A stretch of 64,000 nt of DNA from assembly GCF_900156505.1 (NCBI RefSeq), contig NZ_FTPR01000002.1, forward strand, positions 434,001 through 498,000. The letters run 5' to 3'. This document shows, one piece after another, positions 16,596 to 24,416 of the stretch. The notes beneath the pieces were generated by a model. The model had not been told where the DNA came from. It saw nothing but the letters and a program-made list of their open reading frames with translations, and searched no databases. The stretch comes from Yoonia rosea (GTDB lineage Bacteria > Pseudomonadota > Alphaproteobacteria > Rhodobacterales > Rhodobacteraceae). Both the position numbers and the translations under genes were made by a program. Positions within the stretch are counted from its first letter, which is position 1; each line of letters begins with the position of its first letter.

Positions 16596-18035
16596 TTATG
16601 ACCCGACAAACAAGGGAAAACTGACCCCTAGTGCCCATGCGAGCACCAATCCAAGTGCTGTTCCGGATGTTGCGGCTCCCGACCGGCGTGCGACTTGACG
16701 CCCCATCGTGCCGAAGACTGCGTAGAAAAGCACAAGTACCGGCGCGATCATGATCAGAAAGAACAGCCCCTCGAAGTCCAACGCGACAGCGATGCCGAGT
16801 GATATGAGGAAGGCAAGGCGGACCAGCAGCCTGCGCCAGAACGCTGATTGTGCGCTCAAGACCATATCAGCGAGCATATAGGGCACGGCGCCAAGGGCGA
16901 GGACGCCCATAATCCAGATCCGCTGGGGCGTGGGCAGGAAATTTGCGGCATAACGATCCAGCAAGAAACCGAAAAGCGCGCACCACAGCAACAGAAGCGC
17001 TAGAGCGCTCCAACCGAAAGGCCCGATCGGATGCCGCCAATGCCAAAGCAGGGCAAGCTGTATTCCCCCAAAGATCAACAGGTGCAGGCCAAGGTAATCG
17101 GCCACAAGGACCGGCAAAAAACTGGGTGAAAGCGGTACGGCGATGAGGGGCGTAAGCACCATGGGGGCCAGCAACAAAACCGCCAAATGCTTGCGATCCA
17201 TCTCTGACACCGCAATCTGTTGCTGCGGCAGGCGCTTGGCAATCGGCCCGAACAACAGGACAATTCCGATCAAAAGCCCCAAAATCGCTGTCCCGGTTGG
17301 CAAGATCATGGGCCGTGATTGCCTCCCATAGAAGCCGTCAAGCCACGCGACCGCTTCGGCCCGCCCCGCGCGGCTATGCAGGACCGAGACATGTTCGCTG
17401 AACGGCGCAATGACAGCGCGGCGGCGCAGATCACCGGCGGTGACGGTCTCTCCTGTGGTGGCTGCCGGATCAACCATCTGCACGGCCTCTTGCGCAAAGT
17501 CGCGCAGGCCTGGCTCCCAGCTTCCGGTGATCAAGAGCAGATCGGGCGGGGTGTTGGCATCAATCACCTGCGAAAACGCCGAAACCAGAACCAGAGGGCC
17601 AATATCATCACGCTCTTGCGCAACACGGGCGAGGATATCGGTCGCCATGGAATGCCCCAAGAGCGCAACTGGCACACCGCCCGCATCAATGCTGTCGATG
17701 ACTGCGCTTGTTTGCGCTACCAACAAACGGGTCGTGCCATCCAACGCGTTCACATCGCCCGACATCGGTTGTTTGTGTCGCCCATGCCCGAGGAATTCAA
17801 AGGCGTAGACCTGATACCCTGCCTGAGCGAGTGGCAAAGCATAGCCCTGCATCATCTGCTGCGATCCGGCAAAGCCATGCGCAACCACTACGGAAGGGCC
17901 ATCCGCGCCTGCGCGCGCATATCTTGTCGCGGGTGTTTCGCCGACTGCGAAATGCGTGATGCTGACACCCTGACGGGCGGTTTCCAGCACGAAAAGCGAA
18001 AGGACCACCGCGATGAGGGCCAGAACCGCCTTCAT
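16596..18035 (-). CDS. alpha/beta hydrolase fused to a polytopic membrane domain
   Basis: A 479-residue protein. An N-terminal membrane anchor (residues 1-19) is followed by an alpha/beta hydrolase domain to about residue 250 with oxyanion-type VVAHGFAGSQ and nucleophile elbow LLGHSMAT (Ser in G-H-S-M-A, where the usual last residue is Gly). From about residue 250 to the end there are roughly seven to eight hydrophobic segments. The hydrolase part is probably periplasmic or membrane-proximal. It is the last gene of the Anbu cluster, 12 bases after the anbu stop, so a linked role is plausible. Substrate unknown. Confidence 0.72.
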   Translation of the reverse strand: MKAVLALIAVVLSLFVLETARQGVSITHFAVGETPATRYARAGADGPSVVVAHGFAGSQQMMQGYALPLAQAGYQVYAFEFLGHGRHKQPMSGDVNALDGTTRLLVAQTSAVIDSIDAGGVPVALLGHSMATDILARVAQERDDIGPLVLVSAFSQVIDANTPPDLLLITGSWEPGLRDFAQEAVQMVDPAATTGETVTAGDLRRRAVIAPFSEHVSVLHSRAGRAEAVAWLDGFYGRQSRPMILPTGTAILGLLIGIVLLFGPIAKRLPQQQIAVSEMDRKHLAVLLLAPMVLTPLIAVPLSPSFLPVLVADYLGLHLLIFGGIQLALLWHWRHPIGPFGWSALALLLLWCALFGFLLDRYAANFLPTPQRIWIMGVLALGAVPYMLADMVLSAQSAFWRRLLVRLAFLISLGIAVALDFEGLFFLIMIAPVLVLFYAVFGTMGRQVARRSGAATSGTALGLVLAWALGVSFPLFVGS

Positions 18036-18047
18036 CTTGCGGTGCCG

Positions 18048-18782
18048 CTAGTCAGCCTGATAGCTGGGAAGCTGCGCCAATGCGGTGCGCAAAGCCTCGC
18101 CCCAACTATTTGAAATATGTTGGAAATACGGGTCATCAGCCTCAATCCGCGGGCGTTCTGTCACCTTGAAACTGTCCGCCTCATAGATTTGCAGATCAAG
18201 TGGCAGCCCCACTGAAAGGTTCGCCTTGATCGTGCTGTCAAAAGAGACCAGCAAGAGCTTGATTGTATCTTCGAAACTCATGTCCGGATCATAGGCGCGC
18301 ACCAAAATCGGCTTGCCATATTTGGCTTCACCAATCTGGAAGAACGGGCTGTCTTCGGTAATTTCGATGAAATTGCCCTCTGGATAGATCAGGAACAGCG
18401 TGGGCTTGCCACCTTTGATCTGACCACCAAGGATGACCGATGCGCGGAACTTGGTCGAGGCTTCCTGCCCGTCAGGCCCGCTTTCCTCGATGACTTCTTT
18501 CAAAGTGGCGCCGACCAAGCGTGCCACCTGGAACATCGTCGGCAGTTCCAGCAAAGTGGGGTTACGTTCCGCTGTCGCCTTTGATCGCTCGTCCAGAAGG
18601 CTGACGAGGGCCTGTGTCGTGGCAAGGTTCCCCGCGGTCATCAGGGTGATGACCCGTTCACCGGGCGTGTTCCATGTGAACATTTTGCGGGTGACAGAAA
18701 AGTTATCTACACCGGCATTGGTGCGGGTGTCGGACATAAAGACCAGTCCCTTATTCAGGCGAAGCCCAACACAGTATGTCAA
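18048..18782 (-). CDS. proteasome-type peptidase Anbu (ancestral beta subunit)
   Basis: A 244-residue member of the Ntn-hydrolase proteasome superfamily. After removal of Met1 the N-terminal residue is Thr (MTYCVGLRL), the catalytic nucleophile. The companion residues are Asp18 in FMSDTRTNAG and Lys33 in SVTRKMF, matching the Thr1/Asp17/Lys33 site of HslV and proteasome beta subunits. Anbu is known as a self-compartmentalising HslV relative without an obvious ATPase partner. It sits with transglutaminase-like, alpha-E and ATP-grasp genes, its characteristic neighbours. Confidence 0.92.
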   Translation of the reverse strand: MTYCVGLRLNKGLVFMSDTRTNAGVDNFSVTRKMFTWNTPGERVITLMTAGNLATTQALVSLLDERSKATAERNPTLLELPTMFQVARLVGATLKEVIEESGPDGQEASTKFRASVILGGQIKGGKPTLFLIYPEGNFIEITEDSPFFQIGEAKYGKPILVRAYDPDMSFEDTIKLLLVSFDSTIKANLSVGLPLDLQIYEADSFKVTERPRIEADDPYFQHISNSWGEALRTALAQLPSYQAD

Positions 18783-18830
18783 TTCAGTGGTCCAGTACCG
18801 TTAAGAGAAATCCAGCATTCAAATATGCAT

Positions 18831-19628
18831 CTACTGCTGAATTTGAAGCGATACAATCATTGCTTCTGATGCAGACCCCAAACGCACGCCGGTAACCGGG
18901 GATGCATCGCGCGAATCCAGACCTGTTGCGATCCTCACATAGCGCTCGTCGGGCGAATAACCGTTGGATACGTCAAAACCGACCCAGCCAAGCTCATCGA
19001 TATACGCCTCCGCCCATGCATGGCTCGCGTCTTGGTCGATGCGGTCATTCATCATCAGATAACCGCTGACATAGCGTGCTGGCACACCCGCAAGGCGCGC
19101 TGCCGATATAAAAATCTGCGCATGATCCTGACAGACACCACCACCGGCCATCAGCGCCTCTTCTGCTGTGGTGCCGGAATAGGTTACGGCTTGGCCGTAA
19201 GGTGCCGCCGCGGTGATCGCGTGTGACAACGCGTGCAGCCCATCAAGTACATTGGGCGCTTTTTCCAAAGTCTTCGCCAGCTTGCGGATGCCTTTGCCCG
19301 CCTCGGTCCGCCGTGTGCTTTGCTTGAAATGCCACAGCGGCGCGGTGCCGTAGGTCTTGCCAAAAATGCCATCATTCGTATGAGTCTCGACCTCGCCGGA
19401 CACCTCGACCGTAACTTCGGTAGCACCCTTATCGGCCCGCACCAGAATGGTCTGGTTCTGATAATGGTCCTCGAACGTCAGTTCTTTGGTGCCGCCTGTC
19501 ACCGCGACCGTCCAGTTATGAACCGTCTGATGGCTGGAATTGACAGGTGTCAACCGCACCTGTTGCAGCCCATAGGACACAGGCGCGTCATAGGTATATT
19601 TCGTTGCATGTCTGATACTGAGTCTCAT
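18831..19628 (-). CDS. transglutaminase-like cysteine protease (first copy)
   Basis: A 265-residue protein with an N-terminal beta domain (residues 1-80, a bacterial transglutaminase-like N-terminal region starting MRLSIRHATKYTYDAPVSY) and a transglutaminase core. The catalytic triad is visible: Cys166 in GGVCQDHA, His203 in ASHAWAEAY and Asp219 in VGFDVSNG. No signal peptide, so probably cytosolic. It lies between anbu and the alpha-E gene in one transcription unit. The substrate is unknown; in this context it may process a peptide made by the ATP-grasp partner (inference). Confidence 0.9.
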   Translation of the reverse strand: MRLSIRHATKYTYDAPVSYGLQQVRLTPVNSSHQTVHNWTVAVTGGTKELTFEDHYQNQTILVRADKGATEVTVEVSGEVETHTNDGIFGKTYGTAPLWHFKQSTRRTEAGKGIRKLAKTLEKAPNVLDGLHALSHAITAAAPYGQAVTYSGTTAEEALMAGGGVCQDHAQIFISAARLAGVPARYVSGYLMMNDRIDQDASHAWAEAYIDELGWVGFDVSNGYSPDERYVRIATGLDSRDASPVTGVRLGSASEAMIVSLQIQQ

Positions 19629-19641
19629 GGTCTGAAAATAC

Positions 19642-20583
19642 CTATCCTACAAAACTGTAGTCTTGTTCGATCTGAAGCCCGATCGCGTTGTTTTCACGGA
19701 TGAACGAGGTGATGAATTCGTGCAGCCCCTCATCAAAGACCGTTTCAATCGTGCTGGCGCGCAGTCTGTCGCGCTGGGCTTCGATCATGTCATGACATGG
19801 CAGGCGACTCCCATAGTCCTTGGCCAGATAGCCTAGGTTTTCATCAAGGATCCGGCTACAGAATGACAGGGACCGCGGAAAGCGGCTGTCGAAAATCAAA
19901 AAGTCCGCAATGCTCATCGGTGAGATATCGTCGTTGTTCAGCCACCGGAATGACCGGTAGGCCGACACCGACCGCAGGATCGTTTCCCACTGCACGTTAT
20001 CAAGGGCAGAGCCGACGAAACTGGCTGATGGCAGCAGCGTATAATACTTTACGTCGATGATCCGCGCGGTGTTATCTGCCCGCTCAATCGCGATACCAAG
20101 CTGGGAAAAGTCGAAGATATCATTGCGCAGCATGGTGCCATGTAACGCGCCCCGCACGAGAGCAGTATGGCGGCGGATTTCACCCAGAACTTCTGGCAGT
20201 TTTGCCTGTGTGACGGGCAATTTCAACGCCGCCTTCATGGCCATCCAGCTTTCGTTCACGGCCTCCCAGACTTCGGTTGTCAGTGCCGTGCGCACCATCC
20301 GCGCGTTGGTGCGCGCGTTGTTGATCGACGACATGACACTTGACGGGTTGTCGGTATCACGCAGCAGGAAATCAATCGCATCCAGTGCGGTATAACCATC
20401 ATATTTCTGGTCATAGTTCATCCGCACACCGGCGGTTGTCAGAACGGACTTCCACTCTGATTCAGGGTCTGACGATCGCGTCAGGGCAATCCGGAACCCC
20501 GCCTCAACCAGTCGTGCGGTATTTTCACTGCGTTCCAGAAAGCGGAACATCCAGTACAGCCCACCTGCGGTTTTTCCAAGCAT
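19642..20583 (-). CDS. alpha-E domain protein (DUF403)
   Basis: A 313-residue, largely helical protein beginning MLGKTAGGLYWMFRFLERSE with NTARLVEAGFRIAL, the start typical of the alpha-E family. A second helical segment with IERADNTARIIDVKYYTLLP near residues 170-190 resembles the first. Conserved E-x-x-x-x-T-A-R patterns suggest a binding groove. The biochemical role is unknown. It is almost always next to a circularly permuted ATP-grasp gene, here upstream by 3 bases. Confidence 0.9.
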   Translation of the reverse strand: MLGKTAGGLYWMFRFLERSENTARLVEAGFRIALTRSSDPESEWKSVLTTAGVRMNYDQKYDGYTALDAIDFLLRDTDNPSSVMSSINNARTNARMVRTALTTEVWEAVNESWMAMKAALKLPVTQAKLPEVLGEIRRHTALVRGALHGTMLRNDIFDFSQLGIAIERADNTARIIDVKYYTLLPSASFVGSALDNVQWETILRSVSAYRSFRWLNNDDISPMSIADFLIFDSRFPRSLSFCSRILDENLGYLAKDYGSRLPCHDMIEAQRDRLRASTIETVFDEGLHEFITSFIRENNAIGLQIEQDYSFVG

Positions 20584-20586
20584 CGC

Positions 20587-22014
20587 CTAGTCCTCCAAAA
20601 CCCAAGTGTCTTTTGTGCCGCCGCCCTGGCTGGAATTCACCACCAGTGATCCGGCTTTCAACGCAACGCGTGTCAAACCACCGGGTGTGATGTTCATGCC
20701 GTCAGGCGACACCAGCGCAAAGGGCCGCAGATCGACGTGGCGGGGGGCAAGGCCCTTCTTGGTAAAGATCGGAACGGTCGACAACGACAGTGTCGGCTGC
20801 GCGATATAATTGCCGGGAGATCTTCGCAGTTTCGCTGCGAATGCCGCCAATTCCTTCTTTGATGCGGCGGGGCCAACCAGCATGCCGTAACCACCTGATC
20901 CGTGCACTTCTTTCACCACCAGATCAGCGAGGTTATCGAGCACGTATTTCAACGCATCAGGTTCGGAACAGCGGAAGGTCTGGACGTTCTTCAGGATCGC
21001 CTTTTCACCGGTATAAAACTCGATGATGTCAGGCATGTAGGAATAGATCGCTTTGTCATCGGCAATACCTGTGCCGGGGGCGTTGGCGATAGTGATATTG
21101 CCGGCACGGTAGACATCCATGATGCCGGGCACACCCAACATAGAATCCGGGCGGAAGTTCAGCGGATCAAGGTAATCATCGTCAACACGCCGATAGAGCA
21201 CGTCGATAGTTTTATACCCTTCGGTCGTGCGCATCGCGATATGGCCGTCGACAACGCGCAGATCATGCCCCTCGACCAGTTCCACGCCCATTTGATCGGC
21301 AAGGAATGAATGCTCAAAATAAGCCGAGTTATGGATACCCGGCGTCAGGATCGCGACCGTCGGTTTGCCATTGCATCCCGCCGGTGCGCAGGCCGCAAGG
21401 GACCGGCGCAGGTTCTTGGGGTAATCGCTGACCGGCTGTACCTTGATCTGGCTGAACAGTTCAGGGAACATTTGCAGCATCGTTTCGCGATTTTCGAGCA
21501 TGTAAGACACGCCGGACGGGGTGCGCGCGTTGTCTTCCAGCACAAAGAAGTCATCTTCGCCGGTGCGCACGATATCGGTGCCCACAATATGCGTGTAAAC
21601 ATTTCCCGGCGGTGTCACGCCCATCATCTGCGGCAGGAACGCGGCGTTTTTCGCGATCAGGTCAATCGGCACCACACCGGCGCGCAGAATTTCCTGACGG
21701 TGGTAGATATCATGCAAAAAGGCGTTCACACCGCGCACGCGCTGTTCGATGCCTTTCGACAGCTTTGTCCATTCGCGGTTCGCGATGATCCGCGGGATCA
21801 GATCAAAGGGGATCAGCCGTTCTTGCGCCGCCGCCTGACCGTAAACGTTGAAGGTAATACCCGTCCTGCGAAAGAAGGCTTCTGCCTCTTTCGACTTTTT
21901 GGAAAGGCGCGATACGTCTTCATGCGAGAACCACTCTTGATATTCGGCATAAGGGGCGCGCACGCCTGCCTCGCCCAAAAGCATCTCATCAAAGTGCTGT
22001 CTATCTGTACTCAT
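20587..22014 (-). CDS. circularly permuted ATP-grasp protein (type 2)
   Basis: A 475-residue protein of the circularly permuted ATP-grasp family. Diagnostic segments are VLEDNARTPSGVSYMLENR (about residue 160-180), YRRVDDDYLDPL, NAPGTGIADDKA, VVKEVHGSGGYGM and the C-terminal VVNSSQGGGTKDTWVL. ATP-grasp enzymes of this class are predicted COOH-NH2 ligases that form amide or peptide bonds. It begins the four-gene run ATP-grasp, alpha-E, transglutaminase, Anbu. The ligation substrate is not known. Confidence 0.92.
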   Translation of the reverse strand: MSTDRQHFDEMLLGEAGVRAPYAEYQEWFSHEDVSRLSKKSKEAEAFFRRTGITFNVYGQAAAQERLIPFDLIPRIIANREWTKLSKGIEQRVRGVNAFLHDIYHRQEILRAGVVPIDLIAKNAAFLPQMMGVTPPGNVYTHIVGTDIVRTGEDDFFVLEDNARTPSGVSYMLENRETMLQMFPELFSQIKVQPVSDYPKNLRRSLAACAPAGCNGKPTVAILTPGIHNSAYFEHSFLADQMGVELVEGHDLRVVDGHIAMRTTEGYKTIDVLYRRVDDDYLDPLNFRPDSMLGVPGIMDVYRAGNITIANAPGTGIADDKAIYSYMPDIIEFYTGEKAILKNVQTFRCSEPDALKYVLDNLADLVVKEVHGSGGYGMLVGPAASKKELAAFAAKLRRSPGNYIAQPTLSLSTVPIFTKKGLAPRHVDLRPFALVSPDGMNITPGGLTRVALKAGSLVVNSSQGGGTKDTWVLED

Positions 22015-22072
22015 GCGATCAACCTAACGTACGTAAAAGGAGTTGCAAGCAGATGACGGGCTCCCTGCTGTT

Positions 22073-22852
22073 TCATCCGATGAAAGAAACATCAACTGAC
22101 TGTTTTTTCATCTCCATCCAACCATAGGACGTCATGAACGACACATCAGCCGCGTCACGCCCGACACCGATGCGGACAATCTCGCTTGGGTGGGCCATGC
22201 CTGTGGGGTCTACGATGTGCCATGCACCGTCCAGAAACACCTCGGCGACGGCATGGAAATCCTGCGGATCCACAGCCGGCCCATAGGCACTGGCAATCCG
22301 CGCTGGGATGCCAGCAGAGCGTGCCATGCCAATCAATACATGCGCGTAATCGCGACAGACGCCGCGCCGCGCCTGAAAGCTATCGGTCGCGGTGGTCAGC
22401 GCGTTGCTGGCGCAGATGTCGTAAGTAAAGTTCTCTCTGATCCAGTCGCTCATCTGCGCGATCAGCGCGCCACCCGCGAGTGACCCGAATTGTTCGGGGA
22501 CAAAGCCAAGGAAAGCTTCGGGAAAGCAATAGCGCGAGGGCATTAGAAACTTGGTCACGTCACTGGGCAATTGCGTGACATCATGGGCCGCAAGATGCGC
22601 CAGATCGGATGCAGGGCGCTGCACGCGTACCTTGGCCTCGTAGACGCACTCGAATGCCTGTTCGATCCGCCCCCAGCGACGCAAACCGATGTTCTCTTCG
22701 CCCGGAATGATGTTCCAGTAGATTTCTTTATTCGTGGTGAAGTGACTGCTTTCGCAGACCTGCGCGATATCCTGCGCTGCCTCGATCTGAAGCAGCAGGC
22801 TACAGGAGGTGGCCGTGGTGTAGCTGAGATGTGTCTTGATGGAGATGAGCAC
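22073..22852 (-). CDS. transglutaminase-like protein (second copy)
   Basis: A 259-residue protein. I chose GTG 22852 (MLISIKTHLSYTT) because an AAGG lies about seven bases upstream and the N-terminal beta domain starts there; the frame is open back to 22921 without similarity. The catalytic triad is Cys166 in RRGVCRDYA, His200 in QDFHAVAEV and Asp215 in HIVDPTGM, the same Cys position as in the other copy although the sequences are otherwise quite different. First gene of the Anbu cluster, 58 bases before the ATP-grasp start. Confidence 0.87.
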   Translation of the reverse strand: MLISIKTHLSYTTATSCSLLLQIEAAQDIAQVCESSHFTTNKEIYWNIIPGEENIGLRRWGRIEQAFECVYEAKVRVQRPASDLAHLAAHDVTQLPSDVTKFLMPSRYCFPEAFLGFVPEQFGSLAGGALIAQMSDWIRENFTYDICASNALTTATDSFQARRGVCRDYAHVLIGMARSAGIPARIASAYGPAVDPQDFHAVAEVFLDGAWHIVDPTGMAHPSEIVRIGVGRDAADVSFMTSYGWMEMKKQSVDVSFIG

Positions 22853-23053: not shown

Positions 23054-23075
23054 ACAGGGCCCCGTAGGGCCCTGT
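23054..23075 (-). terminator. rho-independent-type terminator of the formate dehydrogenase operon
   Basis: 9-bp stem ACAGGGCCC/GGGCCCTGT with a CGTA (TACG on the minus strand) loop; on the minus strand it is followed by TTTTAC. It lies 24 bases after the last small gene of the operon. The remaining stretch to 22853 shows no gene and probably holds the promoter of the Anbu cluster. Confidence 0.7.
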
Positions 23076-23098
23076 GTTTCGTCGTATTTGACAGATCG

Positions 23099-23230
23099 TT
23101 AGTCTGACAGGCGCACGTTGTCGTTTGAAACGGTGGCTTCAGCGCTGGACGGGCCGACACGCATCAGGATCTGATTCGCGCCCACCGTGATGATGATCAG
23201 TGCCACCAGAGAGATCAGGAAAGCTTTCAT
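23099..23230 (-). CDS. 43-residue single-span membrane protein at the end of the fdh operon
   Basis: The ORF starts ATG at 23230, four bases after the FdhC stop, and encodes MKAFLISLVALIIITVGAN followed by a short polar tail ending NVRLSD. Residues 3-17 form one hydrophobic helix, so it is either a small inner-membrane protein or a signal-anchored peptide. It is too short for most gene finders. Tight spacing behind the gamma subunit and a terminator just downstream support expression as the last cistron. It may be an accessory subunit of the membrane-bound dehydrogenase, as small subunits occur in other respiratory complexes (inference). Confidence 0.65.
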   Translation of the reverse strand: MKAFLISLVALIIITVGANQILMRVGPSSAEATVSNDNVRLSD

Positions 23231-23234
23231 CGTG

Positions 23235-24416
23235 CTATGCCTCGCTCTTGGAGGGTTTGGCGTTCAGCACCTCATCGGCCCAGATGCTGTGGTGCTCGCG
23301 GGCCCATTGTTCTTCGACCTCGCCTTTGCCCATCGCATCAAAGGCGCCTTCCATGCCGACGGACCCAAGATAGATATGTGCAAAGATGATTGCGGTCAGG
23401 ACAAGGCTGACAATTGCGTGCCAAAGTTGGGCGAACTGCATCTCTTCGTGTGGCAACAGCGGGTAGGGCAAATCAGGCAGGCCGAACCACCCCGGCACGC
23501 CCCAGCCATTGATGACCGAGAATGTGTGCGCAAACATGTTGAATTCGAATGGGAACAGCAACGAAATACCAGAGGCCGAAATCGAGGTTCCGAGCACAAT
23601 CACCGCCCAGAAGATCAGCTTTTGACCTGCGTTGAACTTTTTCGCGGGGGGGTGATCGCCGCCAAACAAACCGCCCGCTTTTGCAAGCCATCTCAGATCG
23701 GTGCGGTCGGGGATGTTATGTACGACCCAGACGACAAAGACGATCACAAGCGCCAGCATGAAAGCCCAAGAGACGTTGTTGTGAATCCATTTGCTGGCGA
23801 TTGCCAAACCAGAAAAGGCCTCATGCCCAAAGGTGGGGATCAGAACCTTGCGGCCCAACAGCGATATCAGTCCGGTGAGCCCAAGCAGGATAAACGACGA
23901 TGCCAATAGCCAGTGGCCAAAACGTTCGAACGCCTTGAAGCGTGTAATCGTCCGTCCTGTCTTTTCGCCGTGAATACGGATGCGCCCACGGATCAGATAG
24001 AACAGCGTCAGCAGCACAAGCGTGCCGCCCAGCAAAGCCGCCGTCATTAAAACCAGTGGTCCTTCGCGGAAAGCCTGCCACCACATCCCACGGTCCTGGA
24101 TCATTGTCGTGACCGCAGGCCCGCGTGCCTGCGTGGTCAGATCGGCAACTTCATAGCGGTATGCGCGCCATAAATCGGGATCGGAGGCGCCACCCAAGGT
24201 GCCAAGCTGATCGGTAATCGGTGCGGCATTTTCGGGGTTGCCAGTCACATCACTCCGGAAACTGTCATCCATGACCAGACCTTCCTGACGGCGCAGGATA
24301 TCTTCCAATGTTTGCGCACCGCCAGTGGCTGCGCGCGGATCTTCGGTGGCCTCTTGCGCCGATGCGGGCGCTGTCATGGCGAATAGCAATGCGAAAACTG
24401 TCATCAGACGCAGCAT
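23235..24416 (-). CDS. formate dehydrogenase gamma subunit (cytochrome b-type)
   Basis: A 393-residue membrane subunit. A signal peptide (residues 1-20, cut after ASA) precedes a periplasmic region of about 90 residues, then a membrane helix near residue 120-140 and a four-helix cytochrome b561-like core. Histidines in FERFGHWLLA, SKWIHNNVSW and AQLWHAIVS are likely haem ligands. It passes electrons from the FeS subunit to quinone. Separated from the beta gene by 82 bases that contain a hairpin. Confidence 0.9.
   Translation of the reverse strand: MLRLMTVFALLFAMTAPASAQEATEDPRAATGGAQTLEDILRRQEGLVMDDSFRSDVTGNPENAAPITDQLGTLGGASDPDLWRAYRYEVADLTTQARGPAVTTMIQDRGMWWQAFREGPLVLMTAALLGGTLVLLTLFYLIRGRIRIHGEKTGRTITRFKAFERFGHWLLASSFILLGLTGLISLLGRKVLIPTFGHEAFSGLAIASKWIHNNVSWAFMLALVIVFVVWVVHNIPDRTDLRWLAKAGGLFGGDHPPAKKFNAGQKLIFWAVIVLGTSISASGISLLFPFEFNMFAHTFSVINGWGVPGWFGLPDLPYPLLPHEEMQFAQLWHAIVSLVLTAIIFAHIYLGSVGMEGAFDAMGKGEVEEQWAREHHSIWADEVLNAKPSKSEA

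What the first reader, a model, noticed from the sequence alone, without database searches (positions are those of the whole stretch)
16596..22852. Anbu proteasome-like peptidase in a cluster with ATP-grasp, alpha-E, two transglutaminases and a membrane hydrolase
Seen: six same-strand genes, transcribed as transglutaminase 2, ATP-grasp, alpha-E, transglutaminase 1, Anbu, membrane hydrolase, with short gaps. Active-site residues are intact in Anbu (Thr after Met1, Asp18, Lys33) and in both transglutaminase proteins (Cys166/His/Asp). Known: Anbu is an HslV-like peptidase, and alpha-E and circularly permuted ATP-grasp proteins accompany it in many bacteria; comparative genomics has proposed a peptide-synthesis or tagging system, but to my knowledge its substrate is not established. 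Inference: the ATP-grasp ligase builds or attaches an amide-linked peptide, the transglutaminase-like enzymes trim or transfer it, and Anbu degrades the product. This is the strongest candidate here for an incompletely described system.
Basis: partly seen in the sequence, partly recalled or inferred. Interest (0 to 1): 0.75.

Follow-up and report, generated by a model that had tools for sequence, protein, structure and literature searches.

The report
Anbu operon with extra transglutaminase-like gene

Summary
The six ORFs exist as described and the named active-site residues are intact. Four of them (circularly permuted ATP-grasp, alpha-E, transglutaminase-like TG1, Anbu) are the published Anbu operon: 77 of 81 other same-family Anbu loci have all four in this order and strand. 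The membrane hydrolase does not belong: among 25 same-family genomes with it, only the window's own has it beside Anbu, and two congeners carry the cassette without it. TG2, the first gene, is a real but separable fifth component. It leads the operon in one roseobacter lineage and otherwise stands apart, yet genomes with it nearly always have Anbu: 20 of 20 (family sample), 21 of 21 (class), 37 of 40 (phylum, against 142 of 352 overall; not corrected for phylogeny). Where Anbu was missing and I looked, ATP-grasp and alpha-E were present (5 of 5), so TG2 may depend on that core rather than on Anbu. TG2 has the fold of Cytophaga 3ISR. The likely mechanism, ATP-driven amide ligation by ATP-grasp/alpha-E with cleavage or transfer by the TG-like proteins and Anbu, is inference. 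Ordinary for the core; a modest new variant for TG2.

The parts
22073..22852 (-). TG2: transglutaminase-like protein, 259 aa, GTG start; C166/H200/D215; 3ISR-type
20587..22014 (-). Circularly permuted type-2 ATP-grasp protein, 475 aa
   Evidence: CP_ATPgrasp_2 1.4e-164; solved homologue 3N6X 1.5e-194
19642..20583 (-). Alpha-E protein, 313 aa, conserved ER motif (R14, E17, R18)
   Evidence: Pfam Alpha-E 3.7e-89; R14/E17/R18 in 75 of 75 aligned rows; AlphaFold model pLDDT 89.7, all helical
18831..19628 (-). TG1: transglutaminase-like protein with Bact_transglu_N, 265 aa; C166/H203/D219
   Evidence: triad in 75 of 75 aligned rows
18048..18782 (-). Anbu, proteasome-like Ntn protein, 244 aa, TTG start, Thr after Met1
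   Evidence: 5LOY 9.6e-88 and four further Anbu sequences of solved structures; Thr2/Asp18/Lys33 conserved
16596..18035 (-). NOT part of the system: alpha/beta hydrolase with hydrophobic C-terminal half, 12 bp after anbu; may share a transcript in this genome
23055..23074 (-). Inverted repeat followed by TTTT between a 43-aa ORF (start 23230) and TG2: possible terminator that separates the cassette from the upstream genes
   Evidence: read by eye in the sequence printed, coordinates; the mechanical terminator scan did not list it

Best explanation
A five-gene cassette TG2 / ATP-grasp / alpha-E / TG1 / Anbu: the known four-gene Anbu operon plus a lineage-specific upstream TG2. The membrane hydrolase is a neighbour only. 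Shown: family membership, gene order, conserved active-site residues, and strong one-way co-occurrence of TG2 with the Anbu / ATP-grasp / alpha-E set. Inferred mechanism: the ATP-grasp protein, with alpha-E as partner, uses ATP to make an amide or isopeptide bond on a peptide or protein in the cytoplasm; TG1 and TG2, Cys-His-Asp enzymes of which only TG1 has a Pfam Bact_transglu_N domain, hydrolyse or transfer such bonds; Anbu, an N-terminal-Thr hydrolase, removes or degrades the product. TG2 would be an optional second TG-like enzyme acting on the same modification, which is why it is kept where the core is present but need not be linked. A nitrogen-economy role is suggested by published regulation in other bacteria. 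The confidence is for the identity part; the mechanism alone I put near 0.3.
For: Core: 77 of 81 other same-family Anbu loci with ATP-grasp, alpha-E, TG1, Anbu in order on one strand; of the 4 others one is a contig end, two have only a distant TG on the opposite strand, one has Anbu alone. The 77 include L068, whose ATP-grasp and alpha-E are only 30% and 27% identical, and L030, whose ATP-grasp match is in two pieces. TG2: 20 of 20 TG2 genomes in the family sample have Anbu (82 of 120 overall); 21 of 21 in the class sample (93 of 289), and 21 of 21 have alpha-E (120 of 289); 37 of 40 at 190 bits or more in the phylum sample (142 of 352; Fisher p 3e-13). TG2 presence needs at least 16 changes on an Anbu tree of 83 rows, so it is not one inherited block. 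Cassette: two congeners carry TG2-ATPgrasp-alphaE-TG1-Anbu with other flanking genes. Linked TG2 copies are 10 of the 12 rows of one branch set (support 87) and need 3 changes, against 9.7 in shuffles. In Burkholderia cenocepacia H111 the cluster I35_5080-83 (DUF404/407, DUF403, two transglutaminase-like proteins) is NtrC- and sigma54-dependent (PMC5491218, passages). The Yersinia bercovieri ATP-grasp protein releases phosphate from ATP (PMC6376114, passages).
Against: No reaction, substrate or complex is shown here for any gene. PMC6376114 reports no Anbu peptidase or amidase activity and no specific interaction among the operon proteins; PMC5666114 argues that protein degradation fits Anbu better than peptide synthesis. 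TG2 occurs without Anbu in 3 of 40 phylum-sample genomes and 5 of 30 named genomes. Unlinked TG2 has no conserved neighbour. No nitrogen-regulation consensus stands out upstream: strict sigma54 0 of 80, NtrC 1 of 80 sequences. The co-occurrence counts are not corrected for phylogeny, all three samples contain the window's own genome, the samples overlap, and the TG2 profile was built from genomes of the family sample. At a laxer cut-off (E <= 1e-35) 66 of 76 have Anbu. For 3 of the 21 class-sample genomes the Anbu match is only a distant one.
Confidence: 0.75

Rival explanations
1. TG2's obligatory partner is the ATP-grasp/alpha-E core, and Anbu is incidental to TG2.
For: All 5 of the 5 named TG2 genomes without an Anbu match (of 30 tested) have alpha-E and ATP-grasp; in Sphingomonas yunnanensis L178 ATP-grasp, alpha-E and TG1 lie about 2 kb before TG2, with no Anbu match in the 18.8 kb locus. 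The NtrC-regulated Burkholderia cluster has two TG-like genes, and the word proteasome does not occur in that paper's main text (PMC5491218, passages).
Against: Among the 120 class-sample genomes with alpha-E, 90 have Anbu, yet all 21 TG2 genomes do (chance 0.0012, not phylogeny-corrected). The three Anbu-less phylum-sample genomes were not tested for the core. In Psychrobacter glaciei the alpha-E family search found nothing, though I read a degenerate alpha-E in its ATP-grasp protein.
Confidence: 0.5
2. Anbu is a true protease that degrades proteins under nitrogen limitation; the ATP-grasp/alpha-E and TG-like proteins tag or prepare them. No peptide is synthesised for its own sake.
For: PMC5666114: epoxomicin and MG132 bind Thr1 of the Pseudomonas aeruginosa Anbu; it cites Anbu upregulation in nitrogen-limited P. 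putida (passages). PMC5491218: related cluster NtrC-dependent.
Against: No substrate cleaved in the assays of PMC5666114 and PMC6376114; PMC5666114 notes no AAA+ partner on the genomic level, and no gene family besides the core recurs in more than 20 of 82 loci here.
Confidence: 0.25
3. The six genes including the membrane hydrolase are one functional system, as the first reader grouped them.
For: Same strand, 12 bp gap after anbu.
Against: 25 of 120 same-family genomes have a near-full-length orthologue, only the window's own beside Anbu, and two of the 25 (G076, G083) have no Anbu match; 14 of 14 orthologue neighbourhoods read lack other Anbu-operon genes; two congeners have the cassette without it.
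Confidence: 0.04
4. TG2 is an unrelated transglutaminase-like protein that happens to sit before the operon.
For: Directly upstream in only 2 of 81 other same-family loci; no conserved neighbour elsewhere.
Against: Co-occurrence in three partly overlapping samples; the cassette keeps TG2 with new flanks.
Confidence: 0.12

Closest known systems
Four-gene Anbu operon (ATP-grasp, alpha-E, transglutaminase, Anbu), PMC5666114 and PMC6376114 (passages seen)
   Same: Same four families; [quoted passage not shown] here the order is ATP-grasp, alpha-E, TG1, Anbu with intact active-site residues
   Different: A second transglutaminase-like gene, TG2, precedes the operon here; Anbu has Thr instead of an aromatic residue at the S1-pocket position 31 (Met numbering)
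Burkholderia cenocepacia H111 cluster I35_5080-83 (PMC5491218, passages seen)
   Same: DUF404/407 (ATP-grasp), DUF403 (alpha-E) and two transglutaminase-like proteins
   Different: One of its transglutaminase-like proteins is described as large; no proteasome-like gene is named in the passages; NtrC/sigma54 dependence shown there, no such site found here
3ISR, putative cysteine protease of Cytophaga hutchinsonii
   Same: TG2 matches it over its full length in sequence profile and predicted fold. PMC6376114 expressed two Anbu paralogues of C. hutchinsonii
   Different: 27% identity; its activity is not known to me; its genome neighbourhood was not examined
HslUV
   Same: Anbu and HslV belong to the same proteasome-like family (PMC8665760, passages)
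   Different: Best solved-structure matches are Anbu entries; none of the seven genes scanned at the locus is an AAA+ protein

Membership tests
Anbu | Thr directly after Met1, no propeptide | tested here: met
   MTYC start; Thr2 in 77 of 78 rows, the other row misread by my script
Anbu | Asp17 and Lys32/33 (Thr1 numbering) | tested here: met
   Asp18 and Lys33 in the window and in the 77 correctly read rows, window included
Anbu | Closest solved relatives are Anbu proteins | tested here: met
   5LOY, 5NYJ, 5NYF, 5NYW, 5LOX at 1.2e-67 or better; the only other hit is a proteasome beta subunit at 1.8e-4
Anbu | Open split-ring assembly | not testable with these tools
   needs biophysics
Anbu-1 S1-pocket signature (reported as highly conserved, not defining; PMC5666114) | Aromatic residue F30 (Thr1 numbering) | tested here: not met
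   Thr in the window; 65 of 78 rows have F or Y, 66 if misread L067 is corrected. Filed as Anbu, not as a typical Anbu-1 pocket
Anbu operon | ATP-grasp, alpha-E, transglutaminase, Anbu together in conserved order | tested here: met
Anbu operon | Single transcript | not testable with these tools
   short gaps only
Circularly permuted type-2 ATP-grasp | CP_ATPgrasp_2 domain above cut-off | tested here: met
   547.9 bits against 32; 3N6X 1.5e-194
Circularly permuted type-2 ATP-grasp | Amide ligase activity | not testable with these tools
   no assay
Transglutaminase-like cysteine enzymes (TG1, TG2) | Cys-His-Asp triad | tested here: met
Transglutaminase-like cysteine enzymes (TG1, TG2) | Acyl transfer rather than hydrolysis | not testable with these tools
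   no assay
HslV/HslUV | Adjacent AAA+ unfoldase gene | tested here: not met
   none of the seven locus proteins scanned has an AAA+ domain; neighbours in other genomes were clustered but not domain-scanned

The most novel reading that the evidence does not exclude
The conserved unit is a conjugation-deconjugation module: ATP-grasp with alpha-E as ligase and two distinct transglutaminase-like enzymes as cleaving or transferring arms, with Anbu as a replaceable end peptidase. TG2 is its overlooked, usually unlinked fifth part. In one roseobacter lineage TG2 joined the operon, the cassette moved as a unit, and Anbu's S1 pocket became polar.
Probability: 0.3. Interest if true: 0.7.

Novelty: new variant of a known kind. 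Interest (0 to 1): 0.4.

Why it matters
Anbu has solved structures, but the papers of which I read passages give it no known substrate and failed to find activity or partners with the four-gene set. A fifth gene that co-occurs with the system gives a concrete further component to add to reconstitution and a second mutant to compare. It also warns that gene neighbourhood alone misses partners. I did not see TG2 described as an Anbu associate in the listings of searches (20 of 221 shown), 51, 56, 57, 79 and 80 or in the passages read, but the two key earlier papers (Iyer 2009; Valas and Bourne 2008) were not held, so this may already be in print.

Tried and rejected
Membrane hydrolase as a component: rejected. 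One of the 15 hydrolase regions fetched (L304) was cut short by my own coordinates and left out, so the count is 14 of 14 read.

Conserved partner gene around unlinked TG2: none shared by more than 2 or 3 loci apart from TG2 itself and frames overlapping it. Conserved extra gene around the Anbu operon: apart from the four core genes and frames overlapping them, no cluster recurs in more than 20 of 82 loci (40 largest clusters printed, not domain-scanned).

Nitrogen-regulation sites: strict sigma54 0 of 80, NtrC 1 of 80 (shuffle mean 0.56), loose sigma54 33 of 80 (shuffle mean 26.8); the consensus patterns were typed from recall.

S1-pocket change as evidence that TG2 and Anbu co-evolve: not independent. 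The non-aromatic residue needs 3 changes on the tree, and the paired test had at most 3 pairs.

Papers PMC11237479 and PMC10318531 (passages) had nothing on this system.

Limits: in the TG2 profile searches at most 9 (class) or 7 (phylum) candidate places a genome were scored, so some TG2 may be missed. Rows dropped or misread: A1 holds 20 of 21 TG2 (L116, misread by my script, left out; also left out, with truncated L184); one search left out 2, 3, 4 and 3 rows of odd length (ATP-grasp, alpha-E, TG1, Anbu), L102 had no Anbu row, and L067's Anbu row was from the wrong strand; one search left L067 out.

Full report
What is there. Six minus-strand ORFs at 16596-22852 were confirmed with their domains. 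Gaps between successive genes are 58, 3, 13, 48 and 12 bp. TG1 and TG2 both have their catalytic Cys at position 166. Anbu's Thr2, Asp18 and Lys33 are present in 77 of 78 aligned rows; the 78th was misread by my script and its true frame has them too.

The core. Anbu is found in 82 of 120 genomes of the same family. I fetched the 81 loci other than the window's. In 77 of 81 the order is ATP-grasp, alpha-E, TG1, Anbu on one strand. The 77 include L068 with a distant ATP-grasp (30%) and alpha-E (27%), and L030 with ATP-grasp in two pieces. The four exceptions are a contig end (L052), two loci where only a distant TG lies upstream on the opposite strand (L074, L088), and one Anbu alone (L082) whose ATP-grasp, alpha-E and TG1 lie on another contig. 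This is the operon described in PMC5666114 and PMC6376114 (passages). In Psychrobacter the ATP-grasp gene continues into a C-terminal part that I read as a degenerate alpha-E (808 aa in L261; my reading of the translation); the Pfam alpha-E search found nothing in the P. glaciei genome at E <= 1e-10.

The hydrolase. 48 of 120 genomes have some match, 25 of them near full length at 190 bits or more. Only the window's own lies beside Anbu; 2 of the 25 have no Anbu match (searches compared by position; contig breaks limit this in draft genomes). In 14 of 14 orthologue regions read no other Anbu-operon gene is present. In two species of the window's genus the cassette is present with other neighbours and without the hydrolase.

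TG2. At 180 bits or more, 20 of 120 same-family genomes have full-length TG2 (21 matches); all 20 have Anbu (Fisher p 3e-4). In the class sample 21 of 289 match the TG2 profile at E <= 1e-40, 16 of them above 190 bits; all 21 have an Anbu match (93 of 289), for 3 of them only a distant one, and all 21 have alpha-E (120 of 289). In the phylum sample 40 of 352 have TG2 at 190 bits or more and 37 of these have Anbu (142 of 352); the exceptions are G603, G599 and G622. At E <= 1e-35 it is 66 of 76. The samples overlap, each contains the window's own genome, and together they hold 65 distinct TG2 genomes. Among 30 of the named loci, chosen by me from the 80 returned, 25 genomes have Anbu; the 5 without, three of them metagenome-assembled, have alpha-E and ATP-grasp. 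These counts are not corrected for phylogeny, but TG2 presence needs at least 16 changes on an Anbu tree of 83 rows, so it is not one inherited block.

Linkage. TG2 stands at the operon in the window, L022, L023, L120, L121, L125, L140, L154, L300 and L301; in L121 it precedes Anbu, with ATP-grasp, alpha-E and TG1 further on. On the TG2 tree these 10 need 3 changes against 9.7 in shuffles (quick method, SH-aLRT only). The three Psychrobacter TG2 copies lie inside an alphaproteobacterial, mainly Rhodobacterales, group of 9 rows (support 97), which suggests horizontal transfer.

Function. In Burkholderia cenocepacia a related cluster is NtrC- and sigma54-dependent (PMC5491218, passages). In marine metagenomes DUF403, 404, 407 and Bact_transglu_N go with urea-metabolism domains (PMC3597751, passages). 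PMC5666114 cites Anbu induction in nitrogen-limited P. putida. I found no such regulatory site here. The ligation and cleavage scheme is inference from the families and follows the published proposal.

Verdict. The core is already known; TG2 as a co-occurring, mostly unlinked component is a new variant as far as my literature searches reach; the hydrolase is a bystander.

Noticed in passing
window 18690-18692 (Anbu residue 31): Anbu has Thr at the S1-pocket position that is Phe or Tyr in 65 of 78 rows (66 with L067 corrected); so do 10 of 10 TG2-linked operons, window included, within a 15-row clade with T, S or A there. One lineage change cannot be told from phylogeny.
   Followed up: partly
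window 18782: Anbu starts with TTG; among 80 other same-family rows my script picked mostly ATG (74), but at least 4 of those rows were misread or of odd length.
   Followed up: no
window 23055-23230: A 43-aa hydrophobic ORF and a GC-rich inverted repeat with a T run lie between the upstream 393-aa ORF (23235-24416; resembles a formate dehydrogenase cytochrome subunit, recalled) and TG2.
   Followed up: no
L261-L263 (Psychrobacter): ATP-grasp gene continues into an alpha-E-like C-terminal part (808 aa in L261), followed by TG1 and Anbu; TG2 lies elsewhere and groups with alphaproteobacterial, mainly Rhodobacterales, copies.
   Followed up: partly
L082 and L277 (G061): Anbu is separated from ATP-grasp, alpha-E and TG1, which lie on another contig.
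   Followed up: partly
L030 5802-7222 (coordinates oriented to Anbu): The ATP-grasp match falls in two pieces in different frames: a frameshift or an assembly error; left as it is.
   Followed up: no
L306, L309, L311, L313: Orthologues of the window's membrane hydrolase share some neighbours in these four loci, among them an ORF of about 800 aa; not studied.
   Followed up: no
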